DNA from: Yoonia ponticola
GTDB lineage: Bacteria > Pseudomonadota > Alphaproteobacteria > Rhodobacterales > Rhodobacteraceae
Direction of reading: 5' to 3'
DNA length: 64,000 nucleotides
Assembly (NCBI RefSeq): GCF_014199395.1
Contig: NZ_JACIJM010000003.1
Coordinates: forward strand, 1-64,000
The notes under the pieces: generated by a model
The model's input: only the letters and a program-made list of their open reading frames with translations
The model's database searches: none
Told to the model about the DNA's origin: nothing
Made by a program: the position numbers and the translations under genes
Shown here: one piece after another, positions 13,352 to 25,559 of the stretch
How positions within the stretch are numbered: the stretch's first letter is position 1
Layout: the number at the start of each line of letters is the position of its first letter

Positions 13352-14446
13352 GTGCAAACACCTTATTATCTCATCGACAAGTCACGCTTGCTGCCCAATC
13401 TCGAAAAGATCGCGTGGCTACGTGAGGCGTCAGGTGCAAAATGCCTGCTCGCGCTCAAGTGCTTTGCCACATGGTCGGTCTTTGATTTCATGGCCGAGTA
13501 TATGGACGGGTCGACGTCGTCATCTTTGTATGAAGTCCGCTTGGGCCACGAGAAATTTTCGGGCGAAACCCACGCCTATTCCGTGGCTTATGCGGATCAC
13601 GAGATTGATCAGGTTTTGGCATGTTCGGACAAGATTATCTTTAATTCGATCGGGCAGTTAACCAAGTTCGCGGGGCAGTCTCAGGGTCATATCCGTGGAC
13701 TGCGGGTTAATCCCGGCGTGTCCACGTCTGACTTTGACCTTGCTGATCCGGCGCGTCCGTTCAGCCGTTTGGGCGAACACGACCCTGCTGCGATTGACGC
13801 GGTTGCGGATCAGATCAGTGGTCTGATGTTCCACAACAACTGCGAAAACGATAGCTTCGCGCGGTTCGACGAGATGCTGAGTTTGATCGAAGACCGTTTC
13901 GGCGCGGTGATCCACAAAATGGATTGGATCAGTCTGGGGGGCGGTATCCACTTTACAGGTAAAGACTATCCGCTGGACCGCCTTGCTGCGCGGCTCAAGG
14001 CATTCGCGCAGAATTTCGGCATCCAAGTCTATCTTGAGCCCGGAGAAGCGGCGATCACGGGCGCTGCCACATTGGAAGTCACGGTGTTGGATACGATGCA
14101 CAACGGCAAGAACCTCGCTATCGTTGATAGTTCTATCGAGGCGCATATGCTGGATTTGCTGATCTACCGCGAGTCTGCAAAGGTTTCCCCGAACACCGGA
14201 AATGAGCAGTGGATGATCTGCGGCAAATCCTGCCTTGCGGGTGATATCTTTGGCGAGTTCCGCTTTGATGCGCCGCTCAAGGCGGGGGATCGGCTTTCGT
14301 TTCAGGACGCGGCGGGCTACACAATGGTTAAGAAAAACTGGTTCAACGGGGTCAAAATGCCAAGCATTGCGATCCGCGAACTTGATGGCACCACACGCAT
14401 GGTGCGTGATTTCAACTATGACGACTTTGCTGCGGCACTGTCATAA
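13352..14446 (+). CDS. nspC: Carboxynorspermidine/carboxyspermidine decarboxylase
   Basis: A PLP-dependent decarboxylase of the alanine-racemase fold (364 residues) that turns carboxy(nor)spermidine into the free polyamine. The PLP lysine lies in the early LLALKCF motif (about residue 35). Later motifs include the HNNCEND segment, LGGGIHFTG and LEPGEA. The start codon is GTG at 13352. It is followed 29 bases later by its partner dehydrogenase. In alphaproteobacteria this route usually makes spermidine or homospermidine; the exact product is not deducible here. Confidence 0.93.
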   Translation: MQTPYYLIDKSRLLPNLEKIAWLREASGAKCLLALKCFATWSVFDFMAEYMDGSTSSSLYEVRLGHEKFSGETHAYSVAYADHEIDQVLACSDKIIFNSIGQLTKFAGQSQGHIRGLRVNPGVSTSDFDLADPARPFSRLGEHDPAAIDAVADQISGLMFHNNCENDSFARFDEMLSLIEDRFGAVIHKMDWISLGGGIHFTGKDYPLDRLAARLKAFAQNFGIQVYLEPGEAAITGAATLEVTVLDTMHNGKNLAIVDSSIEAHMLDLLIYRESAKVSPNTGNEQWMICGKSCLAGDIFGEFRFDAPLKAGDRLSFQDAAGYTMVKKNWFNGVKMPSIAIRELDGTTRMVRDFNYDDFAAALS

Positions 14447-14475
14447 CTCACCAAAATAAGAGGTCTCTTGGATAC

Positions 14476-15717
14476 ATGAAACGTAATGTCCTGATCATTG
14501 GCGCTGGTGGCGTCGCACAAGTTGTTGCACATAAATGTGCGCAAAATAACGACGTTTTGGGCGATCTTCATATCGCAAGCCGTACAATCGCCAAGTGTGA
14601 GGCGATCATCGCAAGCGTGCACGCCAAAGACGCAATGAAACAGGACGGTGTATTCAAGGCCCATGCTGTTGACGGGATGGACACTGCTGCGGTGACCGCA
14701 TTGATCACCGAAACGGGTGCGCAAATCGTGATTAACGTGGGCTCGCCTTTTGTGAACATGACGGTGCTCGAGGCCTGCATCCAAACGGGTGCCGCTTATA
14801 TCGACACCGCGATCCACGAAGACCCGACCAAGATTTGCGAAACGCCGCCATGGTACGGCAACTACGAATGGAAACGCCGCGAAGATTGCGCCGCTGCGGG
14901 TGTCACCGCGATTTTGGGCGCTGGGTTTGATCCTGGCATGGTTAACGCGTTTGCGCGCTTTGCGGTGGACGAATTCATGGACGAGGTCACATCCATCGAC
15001 ATCGTCGACATCAACGCGGGCAACCACGGCAAGTATTTCTCGACCAACTTTGACCCCGAGATCAACTTTCGTGAATTTACTGGCACGGTCTATAGCTGGC
15101 AGCAGGGCGCGTGGCAGGAAAACAAGATGTTCGAAGTGGGCCGCGAATGGGACTTGCCCGTCGTCGGCAAACAAAAAGCCTATATGTCCGGCCACGACGA
15201 GGTGCATTCGCTCGCCGCAAACTACCCGCAGGCCGATATCCGGTTCTGGATGGGCTTTGGCGATCACTACATCAACGTTTTTACGGTCCTGCAAAACCTT
15301 GGCCTGTTGTCCGAGCAGCCAGTGACCACGGCAGAAGGCCTCGAAGTGGTGCCGCTTAAGCTTGTCAAAGCTGTGTTGCCTGACCCGTCCAGCCTCGCGC
15401 CGAATTACACGGGCAAGACCTGCATCGGCGATCTGGTCAAAGGCACCAAGAACGGCGAAGAAGTCGAAGTCTTTGTCTACAACGTGGCCGATCACAAAGA
15501 CGCCTATAACGAAGTTGGCAGCCAAGGGATTTCCTACACCGCAGGCGTCCCTCCGGTGGCTATGGCAATGCTGATCGCGGAGGGCACATATGACAAAGGC
15601 GTCATGATGAATGTCGAAGAGTTGGACCCCAAACCGCTGTTCACCCTTCTCGACACCATCGGCCTGCCAACCCGCGTCAAAGACGCGAATGGCGACCGTG
15701 AATGGAACGCGGCTTAA
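14476..15717 (+). CDS. Carboxy(nor)spermidine dehydrogenase, saccharopine-dehydrogenase family
   Basis: The 413-residue NAD(P)H-dependent enzyme joins an aldehyde (aspartate semialdehyde) with a diamine to make a carboxylated polyamine, the substrate of NspC. The Rossmann loop GAGGVAQVV is at residues 9-17, and family segments such as GAGFDPGM and DINAGNHG follow. Together with nspC this forms a complete two-step spermidine-type pathway. A hairpin terminator follows at 15730-15759. The antisense strand also carries a long open frame, judged a shadow. Confidence 0.92.
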   Translation: MKRNVLIIGAGGVAQVVAHKCAQNNDVLGDLHIASRTIAKCEAIIASVHAKDAMKQDGVFKAHAVDGMDTAAVTALITETGAQIVINVGSPFVNMTVLEACIQTGAAYIDTAIHEDPTKICETPPWYGNYEWKRREDCAAAGVTAILGAGFDPGMVNAFARFAVDEFMDEVTSIDIVDINAGNHGKYFSTNFDPEINFREFTGTVYSWQQGAWQENKMFEVGREWDLPVVGKQKAYMSGHDEVHSLAANYPQADIRFWMGFGDHYINVFTVLQNLGLLSEQPVTTAEGLEVVPLKLVKAVLPDPSSLAPNYTGKTCIGDLVKGTKNGEEVEVFVYNVADHKDAYNEVGSQGISYTAGVPPVAMAMLIAEGTYDKGVMMNVEELDPKPLFTLLDTIGLPTRVKDANGDREWNAA

Positions 15718-16727: not shown

Positions 16728-19190
16728 ATGTCTGCGCCCAAGACGCCGTCCAATACCTTAAATGCAAAGCCAAAAGCTTTGGGGAAACCACTTGTCAGTC
16801 TGTCTGCGGCTGCTGTGTGTTTTGCCAGTGCGGCCTATGCGCAGACCAGCGCTGATTCTGGTCTTGTCGTTCTACCTACGGTTGATGTCGAGACGACCCA
16901 AGCCCCTGCCCCGCAGGTCAGCGCGCCACGCGCATCAACGACCCCGACAGTGACGGATGCCCAACGTCGCGCCCAAGCTGCCGCTGCCGCAGCGGCAGCC
17001 GCCCGTGCAGAAGCTGCCGCCGCCGAGGCCCGCGCCCAAGCCGAAGCTGCAGCAACAGCGCAACGCGCAGAGGCCGCACGCCGCGCCCAAGCCGGTGCAA
17101 ACCCTTACGCCGATCCAGATGCGCCATTGCGTGCCTCAACCATCTCGAACAGCCGCGTCCAAGGTCCATTGTTGGAAACACCGCGCACAGTGACAGTTGC
17201 GACCGAGGAATACCTAGACACCACAAACACCACGTCGATCCGCCAGTTGGCGCGGTCCACACCGGGTGTGTCGCTGGGCTTTGGTGAAGGTGGTAGTTCG
17301 TTCGGGGATAACCTTTATATTCGCGGCTTCCGTGCCAACAACGACGTCTATGTAGACGGCGTGCGCGATTCAGGTCTGGCGGTGCGCGAGACATTCAACT
17401 CCGAGCAAGTCGAGATCGTCAAAGGTCCATCCGGGTCGATCGCAGGTCGCGGGACAACTGGTGGTGCGTTGAACATCGTCACAAAACGTCCACAAGACGT
17501 TGACTTCCAACAGACAACTTTTGAATTTACCGATGCTGGCACGCTGCGCACGACGCTGGATTACAACTGGGCGCAAAGCGATCAGCTGCAATTCCGTATC
17601 AACGGCATGTTGCAAGACGGCGAAGTCGCTGGCCGCGACGATGTGTACGACGACCGCCAAGGTCTCGCGCTGGCTGCCCGTTACAAGGTGAACGACAACA
17701 TCACAGTTGATGCAGATTACAGCTACACCAAATTCGACCAGATGCCGGATTGGGGCGTGGGCTACATCACCGACCCAGACGGGCTTGGTATTTCCGAAGG
17801 CCCGATTACCGAATCCGGTGTGTCGCGCGACACGTTCTACGGCATCGACGGACGCGACTTCCAAGAGTTCGAGCAAAACACCATGAGCGCGAAAGTGACG
17901 TGGGATTTGAACGCGACGACCACGCTGACCAATACGCTGCGCGGTGTGTCATCCGTGAACGACTACATCATCACAGCGCCGAGCCGTGTGAATGATAACG
18001 GCTCAACGGATGTGGCGGATTGGACCGTCGGGACAAGCGTGAAGTCGCGCTATCAAGAAACTGACGTCTATTCCAACACCACCGAGATCGCGGGCAAAGC
18101 GGCGTTCCTTGGCTATCAGCACAGCTACGTGGCGGGTGTCATGTTGCAATCTGAGAGCCTGAAGCGCGCCAGCTATGAAGACCTGCAATCCGAGGACTTT
18201 CCCATCGGTGAAAGCGGCTGTACCCTGCCTGCGCTCAACCCCGACCCATCCCGGTGCTGGAACGGATCGTCACCCGTGCGCGGTGATTTCAGCACCGAAG
18301 TCGATGTAACAACCACCTCTGCTTACGTCACGGACCGCGTCACCCTTTCGCCACGTCTGATCTTTGATGCGGGCCTGCGGGTCGATCATTACGAGACAAC
18401 GGCTTCTGGCACTAGTCGCGGCGTAGATTTTGATCGCGAACGGTCTGACACAATGCTCAACGGGAACCTTGGGCTGACCTATAAGCTACAGGATAACTGG
18501 ACCGTTTACGGTGCTGCGGGCACGTCTACCAACCCGATGGGCCAAGAAATCGAAGCGGGCGGCGGATCTTACGGCGGTCTGGATGCCAACGGCGAACTGC
18601 TTGATCCTGAACGCAACACATCGCTTGAAATCGGGACAAAGTACGAGTTGAACGAACACCTGTTGTTCACAGCCGCCCTGTTCCAGACAACCAAACACAA
18701 TGGCATGGAAACCTTTGACGGCGTCACGGACTCGACGCTGGAATACCGGATGTCGGGCATTGAGTTGGGTGTCGCAGGTCGTGTTGCGGATAAATGGGGC
18801 CTCTACGGTGGTGCTGTGTTTATGCAGTCCGAAATCTTGGACAGCCTCGACGATACCTTGGTCGGCGAACAGATCGCGACAGTCGTGAACGAACAGTTCA
18901 ACCTGCTCGCAACATACGATTACGATGATCGTCTGATGTTGGGCGCACAGATCAACTGGGCTGGTGACGTTGACCTTGGCACAACTGCGCCAAACGGGAA
19001 CAAACTGCCGTCCTATATGACTGTTGATCTGGTGGCGTCTTATGATGTCAGCGACAACGCTGCGATCCGCTTTGGTGTGAAGAACGCATCGGACGAGACA
19101 TATTACGACACCGCCTACCGTTCCGGCGAGCCGTTCACATATGTCGCCCCCGGTCGTGAAATCTGGGCTGCCATCGACGTGAATTTCTAA
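16728..19190 (+). CDS. TonB-dependent siderophore receptor
   Basis: An 820-residue outer membrane receptor. The signal peptide ends near AAYAQT (about 38). A linker then carries an alanine-rich stretch at about 79-123 built from AEAAAAEAR-like units. The plug domain (about 150-260) has SIRQLARSTPGVSLG, the RG(F) motif IRGFRANNDVYVDG, and EIVKGPSG. The beta-barrel ends in an aromatic residue (VNF), as outer membrane assembly requires. GGAG precedes the start. The family imports ferric siderophores with energy from TonB; the complete ExbB-ExbD-TonB set lies downstream. The alanine-rich linker between signal and plug is unusual. Confidence 0.93.
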   Translation: MSAPKTPSNTLNAKPKALGKPLVSLSAAAVCFASAAYAQTSADSGLVVLPTVDVETTQAPAPQVSAPRASTTPTVTDAQRRAQAAAAAAAAARAEAAAAEARAQAEAAATAQRAEAARRAQAGANPYADPDAPLRASTISNSRVQGPLLETPRTVTVATEEYLDTTNTTSIRQLARSTPGVSLGFGEGGSSFGDNLYIRGFRANNDVYVDGVRDSGLAVRETFNSEQVEIVKGPSGSIAGRGTTGGALNIVTKRPQDVDFQQTTFEFTDAGTLRTTLDYNWAQSDQLQFRINGMLQDGEVAGRDDVYDDRQGLALAARYKVNDNITVDADYSYTKFDQMPDWGVGYITDPDGLGISEGPITESGVSRDTFYGIDGRDFQEFEQNTMSAKVTWDLNATTTLTNTLRGVSSVNDYIITAPSRVNDNGSTDVADWTVGTSVKSRYQETDVYSNTTEIAGKAAFLGYQHSYVAGVMLQSESLKRASYEDLQSEDFPIGESGCTLPALNPDPSRCWNGSSPVRGDFSTEVDVTTTSAYVTDRVTLSPRLIFDAGLRVDHYETTASGTSRGVDFDRERSDTMLNGNLGLTYKLQDNWTVYGAAGTSTNPMGQEIEAGGGSYGGLDANGELLDPERNTSLEIGTKYELNEHLLFTAALFQTTKHNGMETFDGVTDSTLEYRMSGIELGVAGRVADKWGLYGGAVFMQSEILDSLDDTLVGEQIATVVNEQFNLLATYDYDDRLMLGAQINWAGDVDLGTTAPNGNKLPSYMTVDLVASYDVSDNAAIRFGVKNASDETYYDTAYRSGEPFTYVAPGREIWAAIDVNF

Positions 19191-19212
19191 AGTTCCCAAG
19201 CCAAACATGCGC

Positions 19213-19241
19213 GCGCGGGCAGGCTTTTGGTTTGCCCGCGC
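19213..19241 (+). terminator. Strong G-C hairpin between receptor and piuC
   Basis: GCGCGGGCA (19213-19221) pairs perfectly with TGCCCGCGC (19233-19241), 22 bases after the receptor stop and 25 bases before the piuC start. No T tract follows. It may stabilise the receptor mRNA end or attenuate downstream expression. Confidence 0.5.
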
Positions 19242-19265
19242 CAATTCAATCCAAAGAGGCACATC

Positions 19266-19949
19266 ATGCTGATCACTATTCCCGACGTCTTTACCCCCGA
19301 AGAAGTCCGCACAATCCGCGACCAACTCGACACTGCCGCTTGGGACAACAGCAACAAAACGGCAGGTGTGCAAAGCGCCGAAGTCAAACATAACCAGCAA
19401 TTAGATGCCAAGGACGCAACCGCGCAGAACCTTGGTAAACTGATCCTCGAACGGCTGGGCCATACGCCGCTGTTCCTGTCGGCGGCCCTGCCCCTGAAAA
19501 TTCTGCCGCCTTTGTTTAACCGTTATGAGCAAGGCGAGACCTTTGGCCTGCACGTGGATAACGCGATCCGGTTGAACCTTTACAACGGCGAACATATCCG
19601 CACTGATCTGTCGATGACCCTGTTTTTCTCGGAACCCGAGGAATACGACGGTGGCGTGCTGGAAATCGAAGATCATTACGGCACGCAAAGCGTCAAGCTC
19701 CCCGCAGGCCACATGGTCCTCTATCCGTCCACATCGCTGCACCGCGTTACCCCTGTGACACGCGGCGCGCGGGTGTCGTCGTTCTTTTGGCTGCAAAGCA
19801 TGATCAAAGCCAACGAGCAGCGCACAACGATGTACGAGTTGGACCAAACCATTCAAACACTTGCCGCCCGCTTTGGCACCAATGACCCCGAAGTCGTGCG
19901 TCTGACCGGGATTTACCACAATCTGATCCGCACTTGGTCCGAGGTTTAA
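19266..19949 (+). CDS. piuC: Fe(II)/2-oxoglutarate-dependent dioxygenase of the PiuC/YbiX family
   Basis: The 228-residue protein has the double-stranded beta-helix iron motif: HVDNAIR (H and D ligands, about 98-100) and a distal H in [11 protein letters not shown] (about 159), with the 2-oxoglutarate-binding arginine nearby in [15 protein letters not shown] precedes the ATG. Members are repeatedly found beside siderophore receptors under iron control, but the substrate is not established. Placement between receptor and exbB is typical. Confidence 0.92.
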
Positions 19950-19950
19950 C

Positions 19951-20775
19951 ATGACCATCCTAACCGCATCCTTTAGCCTCGTCTTTGCTGATTATCAGAC
20001 GCAAGTGACCCACTGGCTCGCCACCGCTGGCGAAGACCACATGTCCCCTGTTGGCATGTTCATGGCCGCTGACGTCATCGTCAAAACCGTGATGTTGATC
20101 CTGATTGTAGCGTCGGTTCTGGTATGGGCGATTTTTGCGGCGCGGCTGATCCTGCTGATCGCGGCGCGTATCCGGCTACGGCGTAACTACCGCGTGCTGG
20201 ACCGCGCGGGCCATCTGGACCGCAATGGCCCGTTTCGCAAAGGCGGCGGTGTCGTAGGGGCAATGGTTCGCGTGGCCATGAGCGAGATCACAGCGTCGCA
20301 AGGGGCCGATCGCGCGGGCATAAAAGAGCGCACCGACAGCGCCTTGTCGCGGATTGAAGCAGGCGCAGGACGCGGGATGCAACGCGGCACCGCACTGCTG
20401 GCGATCACCGGATCATCCGCGCCGTTCATCGGATTGTTCGGCACCGTGTGGGGCATCATGAACAGCTTTGTGTCGATTGCCGAAACCAACACGACAAACC
20501 TTGCCGTCGTGGCCCCCGGTATCGCAGAAGCATTGTTGGCCACGGCGATGGGACTTGTTGCGGCGATCCCTGCTGTGATTTTCTTTAACCTGCTGGCACG
20601 GTTCAACGGGGCGTATAAAGCAATGCTCGCTGACGCCTCCGCGCTGGTCAGTCGGCACCTGTCGCGTGATCTGGACCTTGCGGCAATGACACCGCAGGCT
20701 GAACCAGAGGCCGCCATTGCGGTGGACACCCCAGCCCCAGTGGTCGCAACTCCAGCGCTACAGGCGGCAGAATAA
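19951..20775 (+). CDS. exbB: TonB-system proton channel protein ExbB
   Basis: A 274-residue inner membrane protein of the MotA/TolQ/ExbB family. It has a membrane segment near 42-70, and two more around 150-172 and 190-215 within the conserved ITGSSAPFIGLFGTVWGIM and AEALLATAMGLVAAIPAV regions. With ExbD it makes the proton channel that energises TonB. The start is one base after the piuC stop; the end overlaps exbD by one base. Confidence 0.94.
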   Translation: MTILTASFSLVFADYQTQVTHWLATAGEDHMSPVGMFMAADVIVKTVMLILIVASVLVWAIFAARLILLIAARIRLRRNYRVLDRAGHLDRNGPFRKGGGVVGAMVRVAMSEITASQGADRAGIKERTDSALSRIEAGAGRGMQRGTALLAITGSSAPFIGLFGTVWGIMNSFVSIAETNTTNLAVVAPGIAEALLATAMGLVAAIPAVIFFNLLARFNGAYKAMLADASALVSRHLSRDLDLAAMTPQAEPEAAIAVDTPAPVVATPALQAAE

Positions 20776-21227
20776 TGGGCGCACGATTAGGTATCGGTGA
20801 CGACGACGATCTCACGGAAACATCCGAGATCAATGTCACGCCATTCATCGACGTGATGCTGGTGCTGTTGATCATCTTCATGGTCGCAGCCCCCTTATCG
20901 ACCGTGGATATTCCAGTTGAATTGCCCGTCGCCACAGCAGAAGCACCCGTGCGCCCGTCTGAACCGGTGTTCGTGACCATCAAAGAAGACCTGTCCATCG
21001 TTGCTGGCGAAAACACTGTGACGCTAGAGACGTTGAACTTTGAAATCGGCATTCTGACGGGATTGAACCGCGACGAACGTATTTACCTGCGGGCGGATAA
21101 ATCGGCACCTTACGGCGAAGTTGTGAATGTTATGAACACGTTGCAGCGCGAAGGTTATGTGAAAATCGGGCTTGTCGGATTGGACGAATCCGCAGCACCA
21201 CCTGAAGAAGACACAACCGCCCCATGA
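20775..21227 (+). CDS. exbD: TonB-system protein ExbD
   Basis: The 150-residue protein has a single N-terminal membrane helix carrying the essential aspartate in FIDVMLVLLIIFM (about 25-37) and a periplasmic C-terminal domain with YLRADKSAPYGEVV. It pairs with ExbB. Its stop overlaps the tonB start by four bases. Confidence 0.95.
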   Translation: MGARLGIGDDDDLTETSEINVTPFIDVMLVLLIIFMVAAPLSTVDIPVELPVATAEAPVRPSEPVFVTIKEDLSIVAGENTVTLETLNFEIGILTGLNRDERIYLRADKSAPYGEVVNVMNTLQREGYVKIGLVGLDESAAPPEEDTTAP

Positions 21228-22078
21228 GCCTCGTTTACACATCTCGCCAAGGGTTTGCGCCACTGGTCGCACTGGCGATTGGCGGCAGTCTAGCGCTTCA
21301 TGTGTGGGGGCCTGCTATGATCGTTAAGCGGTATGAAACGCCAGAGATGGTGCCGCAACCGCAAGACGATCTGGGCATCCAAGGTGCGATCATGTTTGAC
21401 CTGTCCGACGTGATCGCTGCCCCCTCTGAAACCTCTGAAGACAGCATCGCGGTCACGGAATCCGTCGCGGCCCCCACGGTCACGGAATCGCCCGAGTATG
21501 TCGATCCGGCGAAAGCAACCGACGCACCGATCTTGCAGCAGATCCCTTACGCGGTTGAGGACGACAGCCTGAAATTCGCCGTCGCAGCCCCCGAGACAGA
21601 GACTGAAACCGACGCTGCCGCCACCGATCTGGCGCAAGAATACGACGAGGAAATGATAGACAAGCCCAGCTCGGCAGGTGCGGACGACGTGGTCGAAACA
21701 ATCGCTGCGCAGTCCGGCGTCGCCTCGGATGCCACCGCCGATCAGGTCCAAGCCGAAGACGAAGGCATTTCAGCAGAGCAAATGGCCGAAGTCACCGAAT
21801 GGCAGAAAAGCATCGTGCTGCGCATCGCCCACGCCAAAACCTACCCCTCCGAGGCGCGGCGCGACGGTATCGAAGGCGAAGTGCGCGTGGCCTTTGAAAT
21901 GGACCGCTACGGCGCAATCATATCGCGGCGGATCGAGACGTCTTCGGGTCACGAAATCCTAGACAATGCAGCGCTGCAAGTCCTTGATGAAATCGGCAAA
22001 ATGCCCACGCCACCCAACCATCTGGGCGGCGACATATTTGCAATGCTGATCCCGTTTAACTTTGCGATTAAAAGATAG
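21224..22078 (+). CDS. tonB: Energy transducer TonB
   Basis: The 284-residue protein has an N-terminal membrane anchor (about 10-30) and a long acidic, Glu/Thr/Ala-rich periplasmic spacer instead of the usual Pro-Lys repeats. The C-terminal TonB domain (about 205-284) contains YPSEARRDGIEGEVRV and the final beta strand FNFAIKR. It closes the operon started by the siderophore receptor. The acidic spacer may simply be a lineage variant. Confidence 0.9.
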   Translation: MSLVYTSRQGFAPLVALAIGGSLALHVWGPAMIVKRYETPEMVPQPQDDLGIQGAIMFDLSDVIAAPSETSEDSIAVTESVAAPTVTESPEYVDPAKATDAPILQQIPYAVEDDSLKFAVAAPETETETDAAATDLAQEYDEEMIDKPSSAGADDVVETIAAQSGVASDATADQVQAEDEGISAEQMAEVTEWQKSIVLRIAHAKTYPSEARRDGIEGEVRVAFEMDRYGAIISRRIETSSGHEILDNAALQVLDEIGKMPTPPNHLGGDIFAMLIPFNFAIKR

Positions 22079-22489: not shown

Positions 22490-22493
22490 ATGA
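22461..22493 (+). CDS. Possible ten-residue leader peptide coupled to the aminotransferase gene
   Basis: ATG at 22461 has GGAG five bases upstream and encodes MGVAALRPRA. Its TGA overlaps the ATG of the aminotransferase (ATGA). The aminotransferase itself has AAGGG only one base before its start, too close to work well, so coupling through this short frame is plausible. This is too short to rest on coding statistics. Confidence 0.35.
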   Translation: MGVAALRPRA

Positions 22494-23704
22494 GGTCGAA
22501 AAAGATTGACCCTATTTTGGACAAATACCTGCTTTTCACGCCAGGTCCTGTGAACGTGGCTGCTTCGTTACGGCACGCAATCGGCAAAGAAGATATCTGC
22601 CACCGCGAGCCTGACTTTGACAATCTGTTGACGAGCATCGAACAAAAGTTGCTGACGCTGTTCGAGATCAAAAAGCGCAATCGTTACCGCGCTGTTGTCA
22701 TCACCGGTTCGGGGACCGCTGCGAACGAAGCGATTTTGTCGTCGGTTGTCGGGAACGGCTCGATTTTGATCCTGTCGAATGGCGAATTTGGCGAGCGTCT
22801 GCACAAGACGTCGGTTATTCACAACAAGCGTACCCATCTGCTACAGCAGCCTTGGGGGATGCCTTTTGATACTGATCAGATCGCAACGTATCTCGCCGCC
22901 CATAAGATCGATGTGATCGCGATGGTGCATCATGAGACGTGCTCTGGAATGCTGAACCCGCTTGCGGTGATCGGTGGGTTGGCAAGGGCGCATGGCGCGA
23001 TCTTTGTGGTCGATGGTGTGAGTTCTGTTGGTGCCGAAGTCATTGATATGGCGGGTTGTAACATCGCGTTTTGTTCGAGCTCCAGCTCCAAGGCAATCGG
23101 GTCTTATCCGGGGTTGTCGTTTGTCATTGGGCGCAAAAAGCAGTTCAAAAAGCTGAAGTTTCATGTCGCCAAAACGACGTATCTGAACCTTGCGACGTTT
23201 TATGGTTTTCTGAAACAACATGGCCAAACACCGAATACACCCGCTGTGCCGTTGTTTTTCGCCTTGGAACAGGCGCTTACCAATATTCTGACCGAGGGCG
23301 TCGCAAACCGTTTTGCACGGATACGCGCGCGCGCTGACCAGTTGCGCTTAGGGATGCGAAAACTGAACCTCGAATTCGTTTTGGACGAAGCAACCATGTG
23401 CACGATCCTGACCACAGTAAAGGTGCCGCCGTCGATTTCGGTCCGCGATCTGCGCGACAGATTGCGCGAGAAATCGATCATCATTTACGAAGGCAAAGGC
23501 TGCTTTGCAGGCAAGGTGTTTCAAGTCGGCAATATCGGCGAGTTGTCTGATCGTGACATCCAGTTCTTCCTCAGCACGCTGCGCGACGTCTTACTCAAAT
23601 TGCAGGCAGAGGCGGCCGATGTTGTGGCCCCAATCCGCACCAAGGCTGTCATTCCATCAATCGTGGCACGCGCAATGCCAACACGCGCAAAGGTACGGTC
23701 ATGA
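22490..23704 (+). CDS. PLP aminotransferase, class V (2-aminoethylphosphonate transaminase/PhnW-like)
   Basis: About 404 residues of class V aminotransferase. It opens with the LFTPGPVNV motif (about 14-22) typical of PhnW and alanine-glyoxylate transaminases, has GSGTAANEA for cofactor phosphate binding, VDGVSSVGAE before the PLP site, and the PLP lysine in SSSSKAIGSYPG. The PhnW family interconverts phosphonoacetaldehyde and 2-aminoethylphosphonate. It overlaps the CDP-alcohol transferase gene by four bases and lies in line with a nucleotidyltransferase. That neighbourhood suggests biosynthesis of an aminated head group rather than phosphonate breakdown. No pepM or ppd gene is in the window, so the substrate remains open. 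Confidence 0.8.
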   Translation: MRSKKIDPILDKYLLFTPGPVNVAASLRHAIGKEDICHREPDFDNLLTSIEQKLLTLFEIKKRNRYRAVVITGSGTAANEAILSSVVGNGSILILSNGEFGERLHKTSVIHNKRTHLLQQPWGMPFDTDQIATYLAAHKIDVIAMVHHETCSGMLNPLAVIGGLARAHGAIFVVDGVSSVGAEVIDMAGCNIAFCSSSSSKAIGSYPGLSFVIGRKKQFKKLKFHVAKTTYLNLATFYGFLKQHGQTPNTPAVPLFFALEQALTNILTEGVANRFARIRARADQLRLGMRKLNLEFVLDEATMCTILTTVKVPPSISVRDLRDRLREKSIIIYEGKGCFAGKVFQVGNIGELSDRDIQFFLSTLRDVLLKLQAEAADVVAPIRTKAVIPSIVARAMPTRAKVRS

Positions 23705-24468
23705 CAGGCAAAATCACACAGCTTTGGGCTACAAAAACCAAAGATGACGAATGGTGGTCATCGTTTGTGACAGCACCGCTTGGGATTGTAGCGAACGTGT
23801 GGGCCGTTGATATTCCCGCAATCACACCGAACCGGATCACCGCCGCGTCATTTGCGGTCGCTGTGGTTGCGACCCTGTGCATTTTGATCGGCGGTATTGG
23901 GTGGTTTATTGCGGCGGCTATACTGATCCATCTCAGTCACATCCTTGATTGTATGGACGGCCAGATGGCGCGTTATCGCAAGGTATCTTCGCCTGTGGGC
24001 AGCTACTTTGACCGCCTTACGGATCAGGTTCAGGTGACGCTATGGTTTGGTGCGGCGGGATATGCGGCCTATGCGCAAACACTAAGCGTCGTGCCTGTGT
24101 TCCTCGCCCTGGTCGGTATCTCGTTTTATGGGCTGCGCGGATATGTGAAGTACATTGCGTTAGAGATCGAAACAGCCCTTGATCCTGAATATCCCGCAAA
24201 GATGGCATTGCGCAAAAAGCGGGACCCTGTGGCCGGATTAGGCTTTGGCCTCACAGCCAATGTGAAATGGTTCATCAAAGAACAGGCCAAGGTGCTGGAC
24301 TGTGACGAGGGTGTGTTCATCTTTATGTTGTCAGTGGCGCTGATCTTTGACCAATTGACCCCCATGCTGTGGATTTTCGCAGCAAGTCAGCTGTATTGGG
24401 GCACCCTGAAAGCGTGGCAGCGCGGTATGAATATCGATGCAAACCAAAAGCTTGCGATCCAAAAGTAA
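23701..24468 (+). CDS. CDP-alcohol phosphatidyltransferase family protein
   Basis: The 255-residue integral membrane enzyme carries the diagnostic motif D-x2-DG-x2-AR-x8-G-x3-D-x3-D, seen as DCMDGQMAR followed by GSYFDRLTDQ (about 80-106). The family moves a phospho-alcohol from a CDP carrier to a lipid or other acceptor. Hydrophobic segments flank the motif. It sits between the aminotransferase (four-base overlap) and the nucleotidyltransferase (35-base gap), so the three probably form one operon making and transferring a CDP-activated head group. Confidence 0.88.
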   Translation: MTGKITQLWATKTKDDEWWSSFVTAPLGIVANVWAVDIPAITPNRITAASFAVAVVATLCILIGGIGWFIAAAILIHLSHILDCMDGQMARYRKVSSPVGSYFDRLTDQVQVTLWFGAAGYAAYAQTLSVVPVFLALVGISFYGLRGYVKYIALEIETALDPEYPAKMALRKKRDPVAGLGFGLTANVKWFIKEQAKVLDCDEGVFIFMLSVALIFDQLTPMLWIFAASQLYWGTLKAWQRGMNIDANQKLAIQK

Positions 24469-24503
24469 CTTTTCGAAACGCTGATCAAGTCAGGACGAGA
24501 CCT

Positions 24504-25325
24504 ATGAAATACGACAACAATCGCCCACCTATGGCCGTTATTCTGGCCGCTGGCATCGGATCGCGCCTCAGCCCGTTAACGGACAAAAGCGCCAAGTGCC
24601 TTTTGTCCGTCGGTGGCTCTGTCATTCTAGAGCGGATGATCCGCAATTGCCTTAGCTGTGGCATGTCCCAATTTGTGCTGGTGCTGGGCCACCGTGCCGA
24701 AGAGATCAAACAGTTCGTCGACAAGACGTTTCGCGGCATCCGCGTCACCTATGTAATCAATGACCGATATCGCGATACCAACACAGGCTATTCGCTGATG
24801 CTTGCCTCATCTGTTGTGGGCAATGCCGAGTTCATCAAATTTGACGCTGATGTCGTGTTTGACACCAAGATTTTACGCGGCTTGGTTGATAGCGCTTTGC
24901 CGAACGTGCTGTGCATTGACCGCAATATCGCACTGGCTGATGAAGAGGTGAAGGTAATCGCAGACGAGCAACTGCGCGTCAGCGAGATTGGCAAATCGGT
25001 CGACCCTGAAACCGCACTCGGTGAATCCATTGGTATCGAGAAAATCAGCGCGGTCACGGGGCCACTGCTGTTTGCCGAGCTGAAGGAAATGATGGAAAGC
25101 CCTGCCCACGCACAGGACTATTACGAGGCCGCCTATGCGCGGTTGGTTGATAAAGGGTTACCGTTTCACGCGCTGGACATCACAGGCTTGAAATGGACCG
25201 AGATCGACACCGTCGAAGATTTTGCGGCCGCCAATGCGAAGTTTGGATCACCCGTCATGACCGTATCGCGCGGACAACAACGGGCGATGGACGAGGCAGA
25301 CGCGAACGCACAGCGCCGCAAGTAG
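24504..25325 (+). CDS. Sugar-phosphate-type nucleotidyltransferase (LicC/PntC-like)
   Basis: The 273-residue protein starts at 24504 after AGGACGAG; a longer in-frame version overlaps the previous gene. The nucleotide-binding signature is AAGIGSRLSPLTDKSAKCLL (about 13-32), and the metal-binding segment is FDADVVFD (about 113-120). Relatives activate phosphocholine, aminoethylphosphonate or sugar phosphates with CTP or another NTP. Next to a CDP-alcohol transferase, cytidylyl transfer is the most economical prediction. Its exact substrate is not readable from these motifs. Confidence 0.82.
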   Translation: MKYDNNRPPMAVILAAGIGSRLSPLTDKSAKCLLSVGGSVILERMIRNCLSCGMSQFVLVLGHRAEEIKQFVDKTFRGIRVTYVINDRYRDTNTGYSLMLASSVVGNAEFIKFDADVVFDTKILRGLVDSALPNVLCIDRNIALADEEVKVIADEQLRVSEIGKSVDPETALGESIGIEKISAVTGPLLFAELKEMMESPAHAQDYYEAAYARLVDKGLPFHALDITGLKWTEIDTVEDFAAANAKFGSPVMTVSRGQQRAMDEADANAQRRK

Positions 25326-25430
25326 GCACATACACCCATTCATTCCGCGTCTTTGACGGACGCGCGATGCATACCGCAGCCTCTCTTTGCCGAAACGGCA
25401 ACGGATCGCTGCATTTTGGAAGGACAGACA

Positions 25431-25559
25431 ATGGCCAAAGGTAAGAACAGCAACAAAGAGTCCAAGAAACCGAAGCAAGAAAAGCCGAAAGTCTCTGCGA
25501 CGGCGAATTCTAATGCTGGAAAACCCCCGATCTCTATCGCGGGTAAAAAGGTAAAATAA
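25431..25559 (+). CDS. Small lysine-rich protein (42 residues) of unknown function
   Basis: The protein starts MAKGKNSNKESKKPKQEK and ends with SIAGKKVK, so it is strongly basic and probably unstructured. The start is set by GGAAGGA seven to eight bases upstream. I believe similar short MAKG...KPK proteins occur in other alphaproteobacteria, without a known function. Nucleic-acid binding is a guess from composition. Confidence 0.65.
   Translation: MAKGKNSNKESKKPKQEKPKVSATANSNAGKPPISIAGKKVK

What the first reader, a model, noticed from the sequence alone, without database searches (positions are those of the whole stretch)
22490..25325. Three-gene head-group pathway: PhnW-like transaminase, CDP-alcohol transferase, nucleotidyltransferase
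The genes are packed in logical order to make an amino head group, activate it with CTP and transfer it to a lipid or surface polymer. Related sets exist for aminoethylphosphonate activation (PntC-type) and phosphocholine (LicC-type). Here there is no PEP mutase or phosphonopyruvate decarboxylase, so the substrate may be imported, made elsewhere, or not a phosphonate. This may be an undescribed phosphonolipid or phospholipid route in marine bacteria.
Basis: partly seen in the sequence, partly recalled or inferred. Interest (0 to 1): 0.7.

Follow-up and report, generated by a model that had tools for sequence, protein, structure and literature searches.

The report
Orphan amino head-group gene cassette
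Three adjacent genes, found together in many unrelated bacteria, look like a small pathway that makes an amino-containing chemical group, activates it with CTP and attaches it to a membrane molecule, but the group is probably not the phosphonate that the gene names suggest.

Summary
Window 22490-25325 holds a PhnW-like PLP enzyme, a CDP-alcohol phosphotransferase (CAP) and a LicC/PntC-type nucleotidyltransferase. The set is a real unit: a CAP-profile scan of one genome per species gave 112 relatives; of the 80 loci kept, 69 have this order and 5 a variant order. It is patchy (5 of 292 genomes of its order), and its carriers are labelled as at least 8 phyla. The phosphonate reading weakens: by the models used, the own genome has no PepM, Ppd, C-P lyase PhnJ or second cassette-like PLP enzyme; PepM was found in 4 of 78 other cassette genomes, near the published ~5% background. 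The PLP enzyme has Gln where PhnW, the Treponema AEP transaminase and 26 of 26 fetched non-cassette relatives have Arg. The nucleotidyltransferase keeps the three catalytic residues tested in PntC. Best reading: an orphan CDP-amino-head-group cassette, substrate more likely a phosphate ester than home-made aminoethylphosphonate. Nine paper searches found no description. Substrate, acceptor and product remain unproven.

The parts
22490..23704 (+). PhnW/AepZ-related class-V PLP enzyme, 404 aa; PLP Lys in SSSKAIG; the substrate-Arg position is Gln in KVFQVGNIGE
   Evidence: Pfam Aminotran_5; TIGR03301 291.7 bits, under its 360.8 cut-off; nearest solved 6pd1 164.6 bits, 9kk8 155.8, 1m32 155.7; Gln in 78 of 84 rows, Arg in 5, gap in 1
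23701..24468 (+). CDP-alcohol phosphotransferase (CAP), 255 aa, with full D-x2-DG-x2-AR-x8-G-x3-D-x3-D motif (D83...D108; motif recalled)
   Evidence: Pfam PF01066 53.8 bits; motif residues invariant in 45 of 45 rows; nearest solved AF2299, then cholinephosphotransferase 1 and IPCT/DIPPS
24504..25325 (+). LicC/PntC-type nucleotidyltransferase, 273 aa; R21, K31, D116, K164, E208 and D235 kept; Asp114 at the PntC Glu104 place
   Evidence: Pfam PF00483/PF12804; nearest solved 6pd1 (PntC half) 69.5 bits, then LicC 49.4 and IPCT 46.3; column counts
25431..25559 (+). 42-aa lysine-rich protein MAKGKNSNKESKKPKQ..., directly downstream; perhaps part of the alphaproteobacterial form of the cassette
   Evidence: A similar small ORF within 700 bases after the nucleotidyltransferase in 33 of 70 loci examined (counted by reading; 31 by the stricter pattern); a hypothetical gene is annotated at this place on the Sulfitobacter SK012 plasmid; no Pfam match; also occurs in genomes away from the cassette

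Best explanation
The three genes are a self-contained, probably horizontally spread head-group cassette. Inferred steps: (1) the PLP enzyme, a PhnW/AepZ offshoot, puts an amino group on (or otherwise converts) a small compound; (2) the LicC/PntC-like enzyme couples the resulting amino-phosphate or amino-phosphonate to CMP with CTP; (3) the membrane CAP enzyme moves the head group from CMP to an acceptor, most simply diacylglycerol, giving an amino phospholipid-like product. Because PepM was not found in most carriers and the PLP enzyme has lost the anion-binding Arg, the head group is more likely a phosphate-ester amino alcohol (such as ethanolamine- or serinol-phosphate or a relative) than AEP made from PEP. 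Shown: gene unit, families, catalytic motifs, spread, absence of PepM hits, Arg-to-Gln change. Inferred: all substrates, direction, acceptor and product.
For: Conserved unit with correlated divergence. Catalytic residues kept: CAP motif; equivalents of PntC Arg15, Lys25, Lys153 and of the amine-facing Glu196 (residue roles from PMC6697681). No PepM, Ppd or PhnJ over cut-off and no second match to the cassette PLP profile at E 1e-20 in the own genome. No ORF of 80 aa or more with EDKxxxxxNS in any of the 80 loci. PepM in 4 of 78 cassette genomes. In one complete genome with both, PepM sits about 1.1 Mb away beside a decarboxylase and a second CAP. Gln for Arg in 78 of 84 rows, i.e. every main-type row with a letter there, against Arg in 26 of 26 other class-V relatives fetched from the same order. 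Kinase-like genes stand beside the cassette in some distant carriers: a P-loop protein in 5 of 80 loci, a uridine-kinase-like protein in 3 more plus one fragment among the 24 loci read, which would fit a phosphate ester.
Against: No substrate was tested. The kinase-like genes are in a minority and not in the window. The Arg's role in PhnW is recalled, not taken from a call; another residue could replace it. A Gln also removes the usual site for the alpha-carboxylate of an amino donor, so the enzyme may not be a transaminase at all. Five Verrucomicrobiota/Planctomycetota loci combine the same CAP with a different PLP enzyme that keeps Arg, so CAP may serve more than one head group. The nearest solved relatives of both soluble enzymes are AEP enzymes. 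Many of the 78 genomes are MAGs whose completeness the calls did not tell, so some PepM absences may be gaps. 16 of 50 carriers have paired ORFs matching the two halves of phosphonopyruvate decarboxylase below its cut-off.
Confidence: 0.45

Rival explanations
1. Salvage route: AEP from sea water is imported, activated by the PntC-like enzyme and attached to lipid by CAP; the PLP enzyme tunes the AEP pool.
For: Both soluble enzymes are nearest to T. denticola PntC-AEPT; a PhnD-like binding protein (183.6 bits) beside what reads as an ABC ATPase is in the own genome.
Against: With imported AEP no transaminase is needed, yet it is present in 79 of 80 loci, the other being cut at a contig edge; its Arg is lost; PhnD-like proteins exceed the cut-off in 10 of 14 control genomes and prove little.
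Confidence: 0.2
2. The product is a soluble phosphodiester (compatible solute), as in di-myo-inositol phosphate synthesis by IPCT/DIPPS, not a lipid.
For: IPCT/DIPPS is among the nearest relatives of both CAP and nucleotidyltransferase; hosts such as Shewanella benthica (pressure-loving by recall) carry the set.
Against: Cholinephosphotransferase 1 is at least as near to CAP; PntC and LicC are nearer to the nucleotidyltransferase than IPCT. An inositol-phosphate synthase was not searched for.
Confidence: 0.12
3. A phosphonate head group made by a C-P bond-forming enzyme other than PepM.
For: AEP-type enzymes recur in 74 of 78 genomes without a PepM hit.
Against: No candidate for C-P bond formation was recognised among gene clusters shared by 4 or more loci or in the 24 loci read; the Arg-to-Gln change argues against AEP chemistry.
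Confidence: 0.04
4. The PLP enzyme acts after activation, on a CMP-linked or lipid-linked aldehyde, as sugar aminotransferases act on nucleotide sugars.
For: Would explain the loss of the small-anion Arg.
Against: The nucleotidyltransferase keeps the amine-facing Glu (E196 equivalent) in 77 of 80 rows, the other 3 being gaps, which suggests that the amine is there at the CTP step.
Confidence: 0.1

Closest known systems
PntC-AEPT phosphonyl tailoring (Treponema denticola Tde1415, PDB 6pd1/6pd2; PMC6697681)
   Same: A PhnW-type PLP domain and a LicC-type cytidylyltransferase work together; Arg15, Lys25, Lys153 and Glu196 have equivalents here
   Different: There the genes lie near PepM; here no PepM was found, the PLP enzyme has Gln for Arg, Glu104 is Asp, the genes are separate and a CAP lies between them
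LicC / Lic phosphocholine pathway (PDB 1jyk)
   Same: CTP activation of an amino phosphate; Asp at the Glu104 place as in LicC
   Different: A PLP enzyme is added and transfer is by a CAP-family protein; LicA and LicD were not searched for
CDP-ethanolamine/choline (Kennedy) pathway with CHPT1/CEPT1
   Same: CDP-activated amino head group moved by a CAP-family enzyme; CHPT1 is the second nearest solved chain
   Different: Here the amino group would come from a PLP enzyme; CAP is of another subfamily; the nucleotidyltransferase is of another fold family (recalled)
Archaeal/thermophile IPCT-DIPPS (PDB 4mnd, 2xme)
   Same: Nucleotidyltransferase plus CAP
   Different: Separate genes, weak similarity, and a PLP enzyme is added
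PepM cluster with its own CAP in Lucifugimonas marina (L169)
   Same: A CAP-family gene in a cluster that by reading also has a cytidylyltransferase-like domain
   Different: Has PepM and Ppd; its CAP is 31% identical to the cassette CAP (34.7 bits)

Membership tests
PntC/AEPT phosphonyl tailoring | PepM (EDKxxxxxNS) in the genome | tested here: not met
   Own genome best 39.7 bits against a 319.55 cut-off; found in 4 of 78 other cassette genomes
PntC/AEPT phosphonyl tailoring | Phosphonopyruvate decarboxylase in the genome | tested here: not met
   Own genome best 33.3 bits against 312.5; over cut-off in 1 of 50 cassette genomes, split and broken in G338, and paired half-matches (89-137 bits for the larger half) in 16 of 50
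PntC/AEPT phosphonyl tailoring | Catalytic Arg15, Lys25, Lys153 of PntC | tested here: met
   R in 77 of 80 (3 gaps), K in 79 of 80 (1 gap), K in 74 of 80 (5 Asn, all variant type; 1 gap)
PntC/AEPT phosphonyl tailoring | AEP amine pocket Glu104 and Glu196 | tested here: inconclusive
   Glu196 place E in 77 of 80 (3 gaps); Glu104 place D in 75, N in 5
PntC/AEPT phosphonyl tailoring | CMP-AEP formation | not testable with these tools
   needs an assay
AEP transaminase (PhnW / AepZ) | NCBIfam equivalog cut-off | tested here: not met
   TIGR03301 291.7 of 360.8; TIGR02326 210.5 of 400.8; NF010006 213.6 of 296
AEP transaminase (PhnW / AepZ) | Anion-binding Arg (Arg340 in Salmonella PhnW, role and number recalled) | tested here: not met
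   Gln in the window and in 78 of 84 rows; Arg in 6pd1, 9kk8 and 1m32
AEP transaminase (PhnW / AepZ) | PLP lysine | tested here: met
   K in 83 of 84 rows, 1 gap
CDP-alcohol phosphotransferase superfamily | D-x2-DG-x2-AR-x8-G-x3-D-x3-D (motif recalled) | tested here: met
   invariant in 45 of 45 rows
IPCT/DIPPS | NF041135 cut-off | tested here: inconclusive
Lic pathway | LicA choline kinase and LicD transferase | not tested
   not searched for

The most novel reading that the evidence does not exclude
A widespread, undescribed head-group pathway: a class-V PLP enzyme that no longer uses the canonical Arg makes an amino head group other than AEP, which is CTP-activated and placed on a membrane lipid in bacteria of many phyla; the CAP gene is the constant part and has been paired with two only distantly related PLP enzyme/nucleotidyltransferase pairs.
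Probability: 0.42. Interest if true: 0.75.

Novelty: new variant of a known kind. Interest (0 to 1): 0.58.

Why it matters
Genes of this set carry names such as phosphocholine cytidylyltransferase, choline kinase or IPC transferase/DIPP synthase in public data, and the PLP enzyme resembles PhnW, so surveys of marine phosphonate cycling that count phnW could count it wrongly (inference). If the product is a new amino lipid, it would be shared by bacteria labelled as at least eight phyla, and it can be looked for now in cultured strains.

Tried and rejected
The own-genome PF13714 hit of 239.6 bits was considered as PepM and rejected: 39.7 bits by the PepM model, and the protein as listed shows no EDKxxxxxNS by reading. 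The G313 (L092) hit of 285 bits was not counted as PepM: no EDKxxxxxNS. A HAD hydrolase upstream in 18 loci and GroEL in 17 loci (87 and 191 aligned residues only in L009 and L018) are treated as location, not function; GroEL was not found in the window, the HAD gene was not searched for there. The small basic protein was considered as a specific fourth member and toned down: 23 of 149 genomes of the family have it, and none of the 19 other loci fetched there shows cassette genes in the roughly 1.5 kb on either side (two loci are shorter). Viral contigs: no relative. Plasmids: one record. Papers: searches found no description of this set in open-licence papers; PMC6697681 was read in parts 1-3 of 8 and by passages, PMC9381506 and PMC8154272 by passages only, the rest as search listings. 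Rows: the 84, 80 and 85 rows include L086-L090: L086 is the window; L087, L088 and L090 appear to be re-fetched copies from the genomes of L012, L033 and L044 (same PepM-hit coordinates); L089 has a truncated PLP gene. L074 and L079 bear the same MAG name, as do L019 and L032; L032 and L079 were therefore left out of the 78-genome PepM count. L066 and L068 are near-identical and may be one contig binned twice; MAG phylum labels may be wrong. The Ppd search covered 50 of these 78 genomes.

Full report
What is there. Window 22490-25325 on the + strand holds three genes in a row: a PhnW-like class-V PLP enzyme (404 aa), a CDP-alcohol phosphotransferase (CAP, 255 aa) whose ATG overlaps the first stop by 4 bases, and a LicC/PntC-type nucleotidyltransferase (273 aa) after a gap of 35 bases. 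A 42-aa lysine-rich ORF follows at 25431-25559. Upstream are a TonB-dependent receptor, a PKHD-type hydroxylase, an ExbB-type channel protein and TonB; downstream on the other strand a vWA protein, a photolyase-related protein and an MFS transporter. None of these points to phosphonate metabolism.

It is a unit. A CAP profile scanned against one genome per species found 112 relatives, of which 80 loci were kept. 69 of 80 have PLP enzyme-CAP-nucleotidyltransferase order, 5 have PLP enzyme-nucleotidyltransferase-CAP, 5 show no nucleotidyltransferase beside CAP (three of them end within 560 bases) and 1 is cut before the PLP enzyme. In L034 the first two genes read as one open frame (not checked further). 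Pairwise identities of the three proteins correlate over 70 rows (Spearman 0.72 to 0.80; 0.70 to 0.84 in 65 rows without the variant type). The CAP tree holds rows labelled Pseudomonadota, Bacteroidota, Verrucomicrobiota, Actinomycetota, Planctomycetota, Chloroflexota, Nitrospinota and Chlamydiota. In the window's own order 5 of 292 genomes, the own one included, carry CAP at E 1e-30, and none of the 16 same-genus genomes listed does. One plasmid, Sulfitobacter sp. SK012 unnamed3, carries it. Two relatives show decay: G111 keeps only the PLP enzyme, and in G075 only the end of the PLP gene is left, with an ORF upstream that reads like a transposase. Transfer and loss are therefore likely; MAG labels may mislead. 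Many record titles name marine genera, but habitat was not tabulated.

Is it a phosphonate route? The own genome (3.73 Mb in 30 contigs, 99.99% complete) has no PepM over the TIGR02320 cut-off (best 39.7 of 319.55), no Ppd (33.3 of 312.5), no PhnJ match, and no other match to the cassette PLP profile at E 1e-20. It has one strong PhnD-like binding protein (183.6 bits) beside what reads as an ABC ATPase, and one more just over the cut-off; 10 of 14 control genomes also exceed that cut-off. Of 78 other cassette genomes (50, 28; the five further handles are three re-fetched genomes, G075 and G111, none over the cut-off), 3 have PepM over the cut-off (G336, G365, G367) and 1 (G338) has a fragment at a contig end with EDKxxxxxNS. 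That is 4 of 78, about 5%, the share of sampled microbes with Ppm given in PMC6697681. Completeness was not told for these genomes and many are MAGs. In Lucifugimonas marina, a complete chromosome with both, PepM lies about 1.1 Mb from the cassette beside Ppd, a dehydrogenase-like protein (by reading) and a second CAP; its PepM has an added N-terminal part that reads like a cytidylyltransferase domain. Ppd was over the cut-off in 1 of 50. In 16 of 50 the listed rows show a pair of adjacent ORFs matching its two halves (larger half 89-137 bits), which I take, from recall, for a sulfopyruvate-decarboxylase-like enzyme; this is the main result that could still speak for a phosphonate route in those carriers.

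The PLP enzyme. It scores under the cut-offs of the three AEP-transaminase equivalogs listed. The PLP lysine is kept in 83 of 84 rows. Where 6pd1, 9kk8 and 1m32 read FRIANIG or FRIGNIG, the window reads FQVGNIG. The column is Gln in 78 of 84 rows, Arg in the 5 variant loci and a gap in one fragment. 26 other class-V homologues, one from each of 26 genomes of the same order and all that were fetched, have Arg (more matches were listed than fetched). From recall, this Arg is Arg340 of Salmonella PhnW and the carboxylate/phosphonate anchor of the family. Its uniform loss suggests a changed substrate or reaction.

The nucleotidyltransferase. Its nearest solved relative is the PntC half of T. denticola Tde1415 (69.5 bits by profile), then LicC (49.4) and IPCT (46.3). 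By the alignment and the residue roles in PMC6697681, Arg15, Lys25, Lys153 and Glu196 are kept as R21, K31, K164 and E208, while Glu104 is Asp114, as in LicC. So it should activate an amino phosphate or phosphonate with CTP; which one cannot be read from this.

CAP. The full CAP motif (recalled) is invariant in 45 of 45 rows. By profile the nearest solved chains are AF2299 (42.5 bits), cholinephosphotransferase 1 (37.0) and IPCT/DIPPS (31.3). With a CDP-head-group maker beside it, a lipid acceptor is the simplest idea, but a soluble acceptor is not excluded.

The variant. In L074, L076, L079, L084 and L085 the same CAP (58% mean identity to the rest) stands with a PLP enzyme and nucleotidyltransferase of only 27% and 24% mean identity to the main type, with Arg in place of Gln and Asn at the Glu104 and Lys153 places. 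Two of three enzymes thus seem to have been exchanged as a pair around a constant CAP, which ties the PLP enzyme and nucleotidyltransferase to one another and to CAP.

Added genes. Some carriers have a further gene between or beside the core: a P-loop protein (by its motif) in L041, L049, L073 and, after CAP, in L074 and L084 (5 of 80 by clustering; the L041 copy has no Pfam or NCBIfam match); and, among the 24 loci read, a uridine-kinase-like protein in L061, L066, L068 and a fragment in L067 (L066 scanned), a HisB-like HAD phosphatase in L042 and a second CAP in L082. Kinase-like genes of two kinds in unrelated hosts fit a phosphate ester made from an amino alcohol, but the support is weak and none is in the window.

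Verdict. The set is an orphan CDP-amino-head-group cassette, a new variant of the Pnt/Lic kind of logic. It works like them; it fails the PepM, equivalog-score and transaminase-Arg tests for membership in the AEP pathway. Product, acceptor and direction are open, and no paper describing it turned up in the searches named, which cover open-licence papers only.

Noticed in passing
L007, L008, L009, L012, L017, L018, L019, L022, L023, L026, L027, L028, L030, L031, L034, L035, L038; plasmid locus L168: GroEL lies within a few kb of the cassette in 17 of 80 loci (only partly in L009 and L018), downstream in most and upstream in L030 and L035; on the Sulfitobacter SK012 plasmid GroES, a 2OG oxygenase and rpsU follow. 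It may be a mobile island with a second chaperonin. GroEL was not found in the window.
   Followed up: partly
window 25431-25559: Small lysine-rich protein family; 23 of 149 genomes of the family have it, away from the cassette in the 19 other loci fetched, yet it follows the nucleotidyltransferase in 33 of 70 loci.
   Followed up: partly
window 25387-25401: TTGCCGAAACGGCAA inverted repeat shortly before the small ORF; the translations suggest that a similar stretch is kept in other loci.
   Followed up: no
L133 (G111), L134 (G075): Remnants of the cassette: a lone PLP enzyme in one, a truncated PLP gene near a transposase-like ORF in the other.
   Followed up: partly
L169: Lucifugimonas marina PepM cluster with Ppd, a dehydrogenase-like protein and a CAP gene: by reading it looks like a hydroxyethylphosphonate tailoring cluster.
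   Followed up: partly
window 13352-15717: Decarboxylase C-terminal domain protein and saccharopine-dehydrogenase-like protein side by side, perhaps the carboxynorspermidine polyamine route (recalled).
   Followed up: no
window 16728-22078: TonB-dependent receptor, PKHD-type hydroxylase, ExbB-type protein and TonB in a row: an iron-uptake-like operon directly upstream of the cassette.
   Followed up: no
16 of genomes G292-G341, e.g. L143, L144: Pairs of adjacent ORFs matching the two halves of phosphonopyruvate decarboxylase in cassette genomes, likely a two-subunit sulfopyruvate-type decarboxylase (recalled).
   Followed up: no
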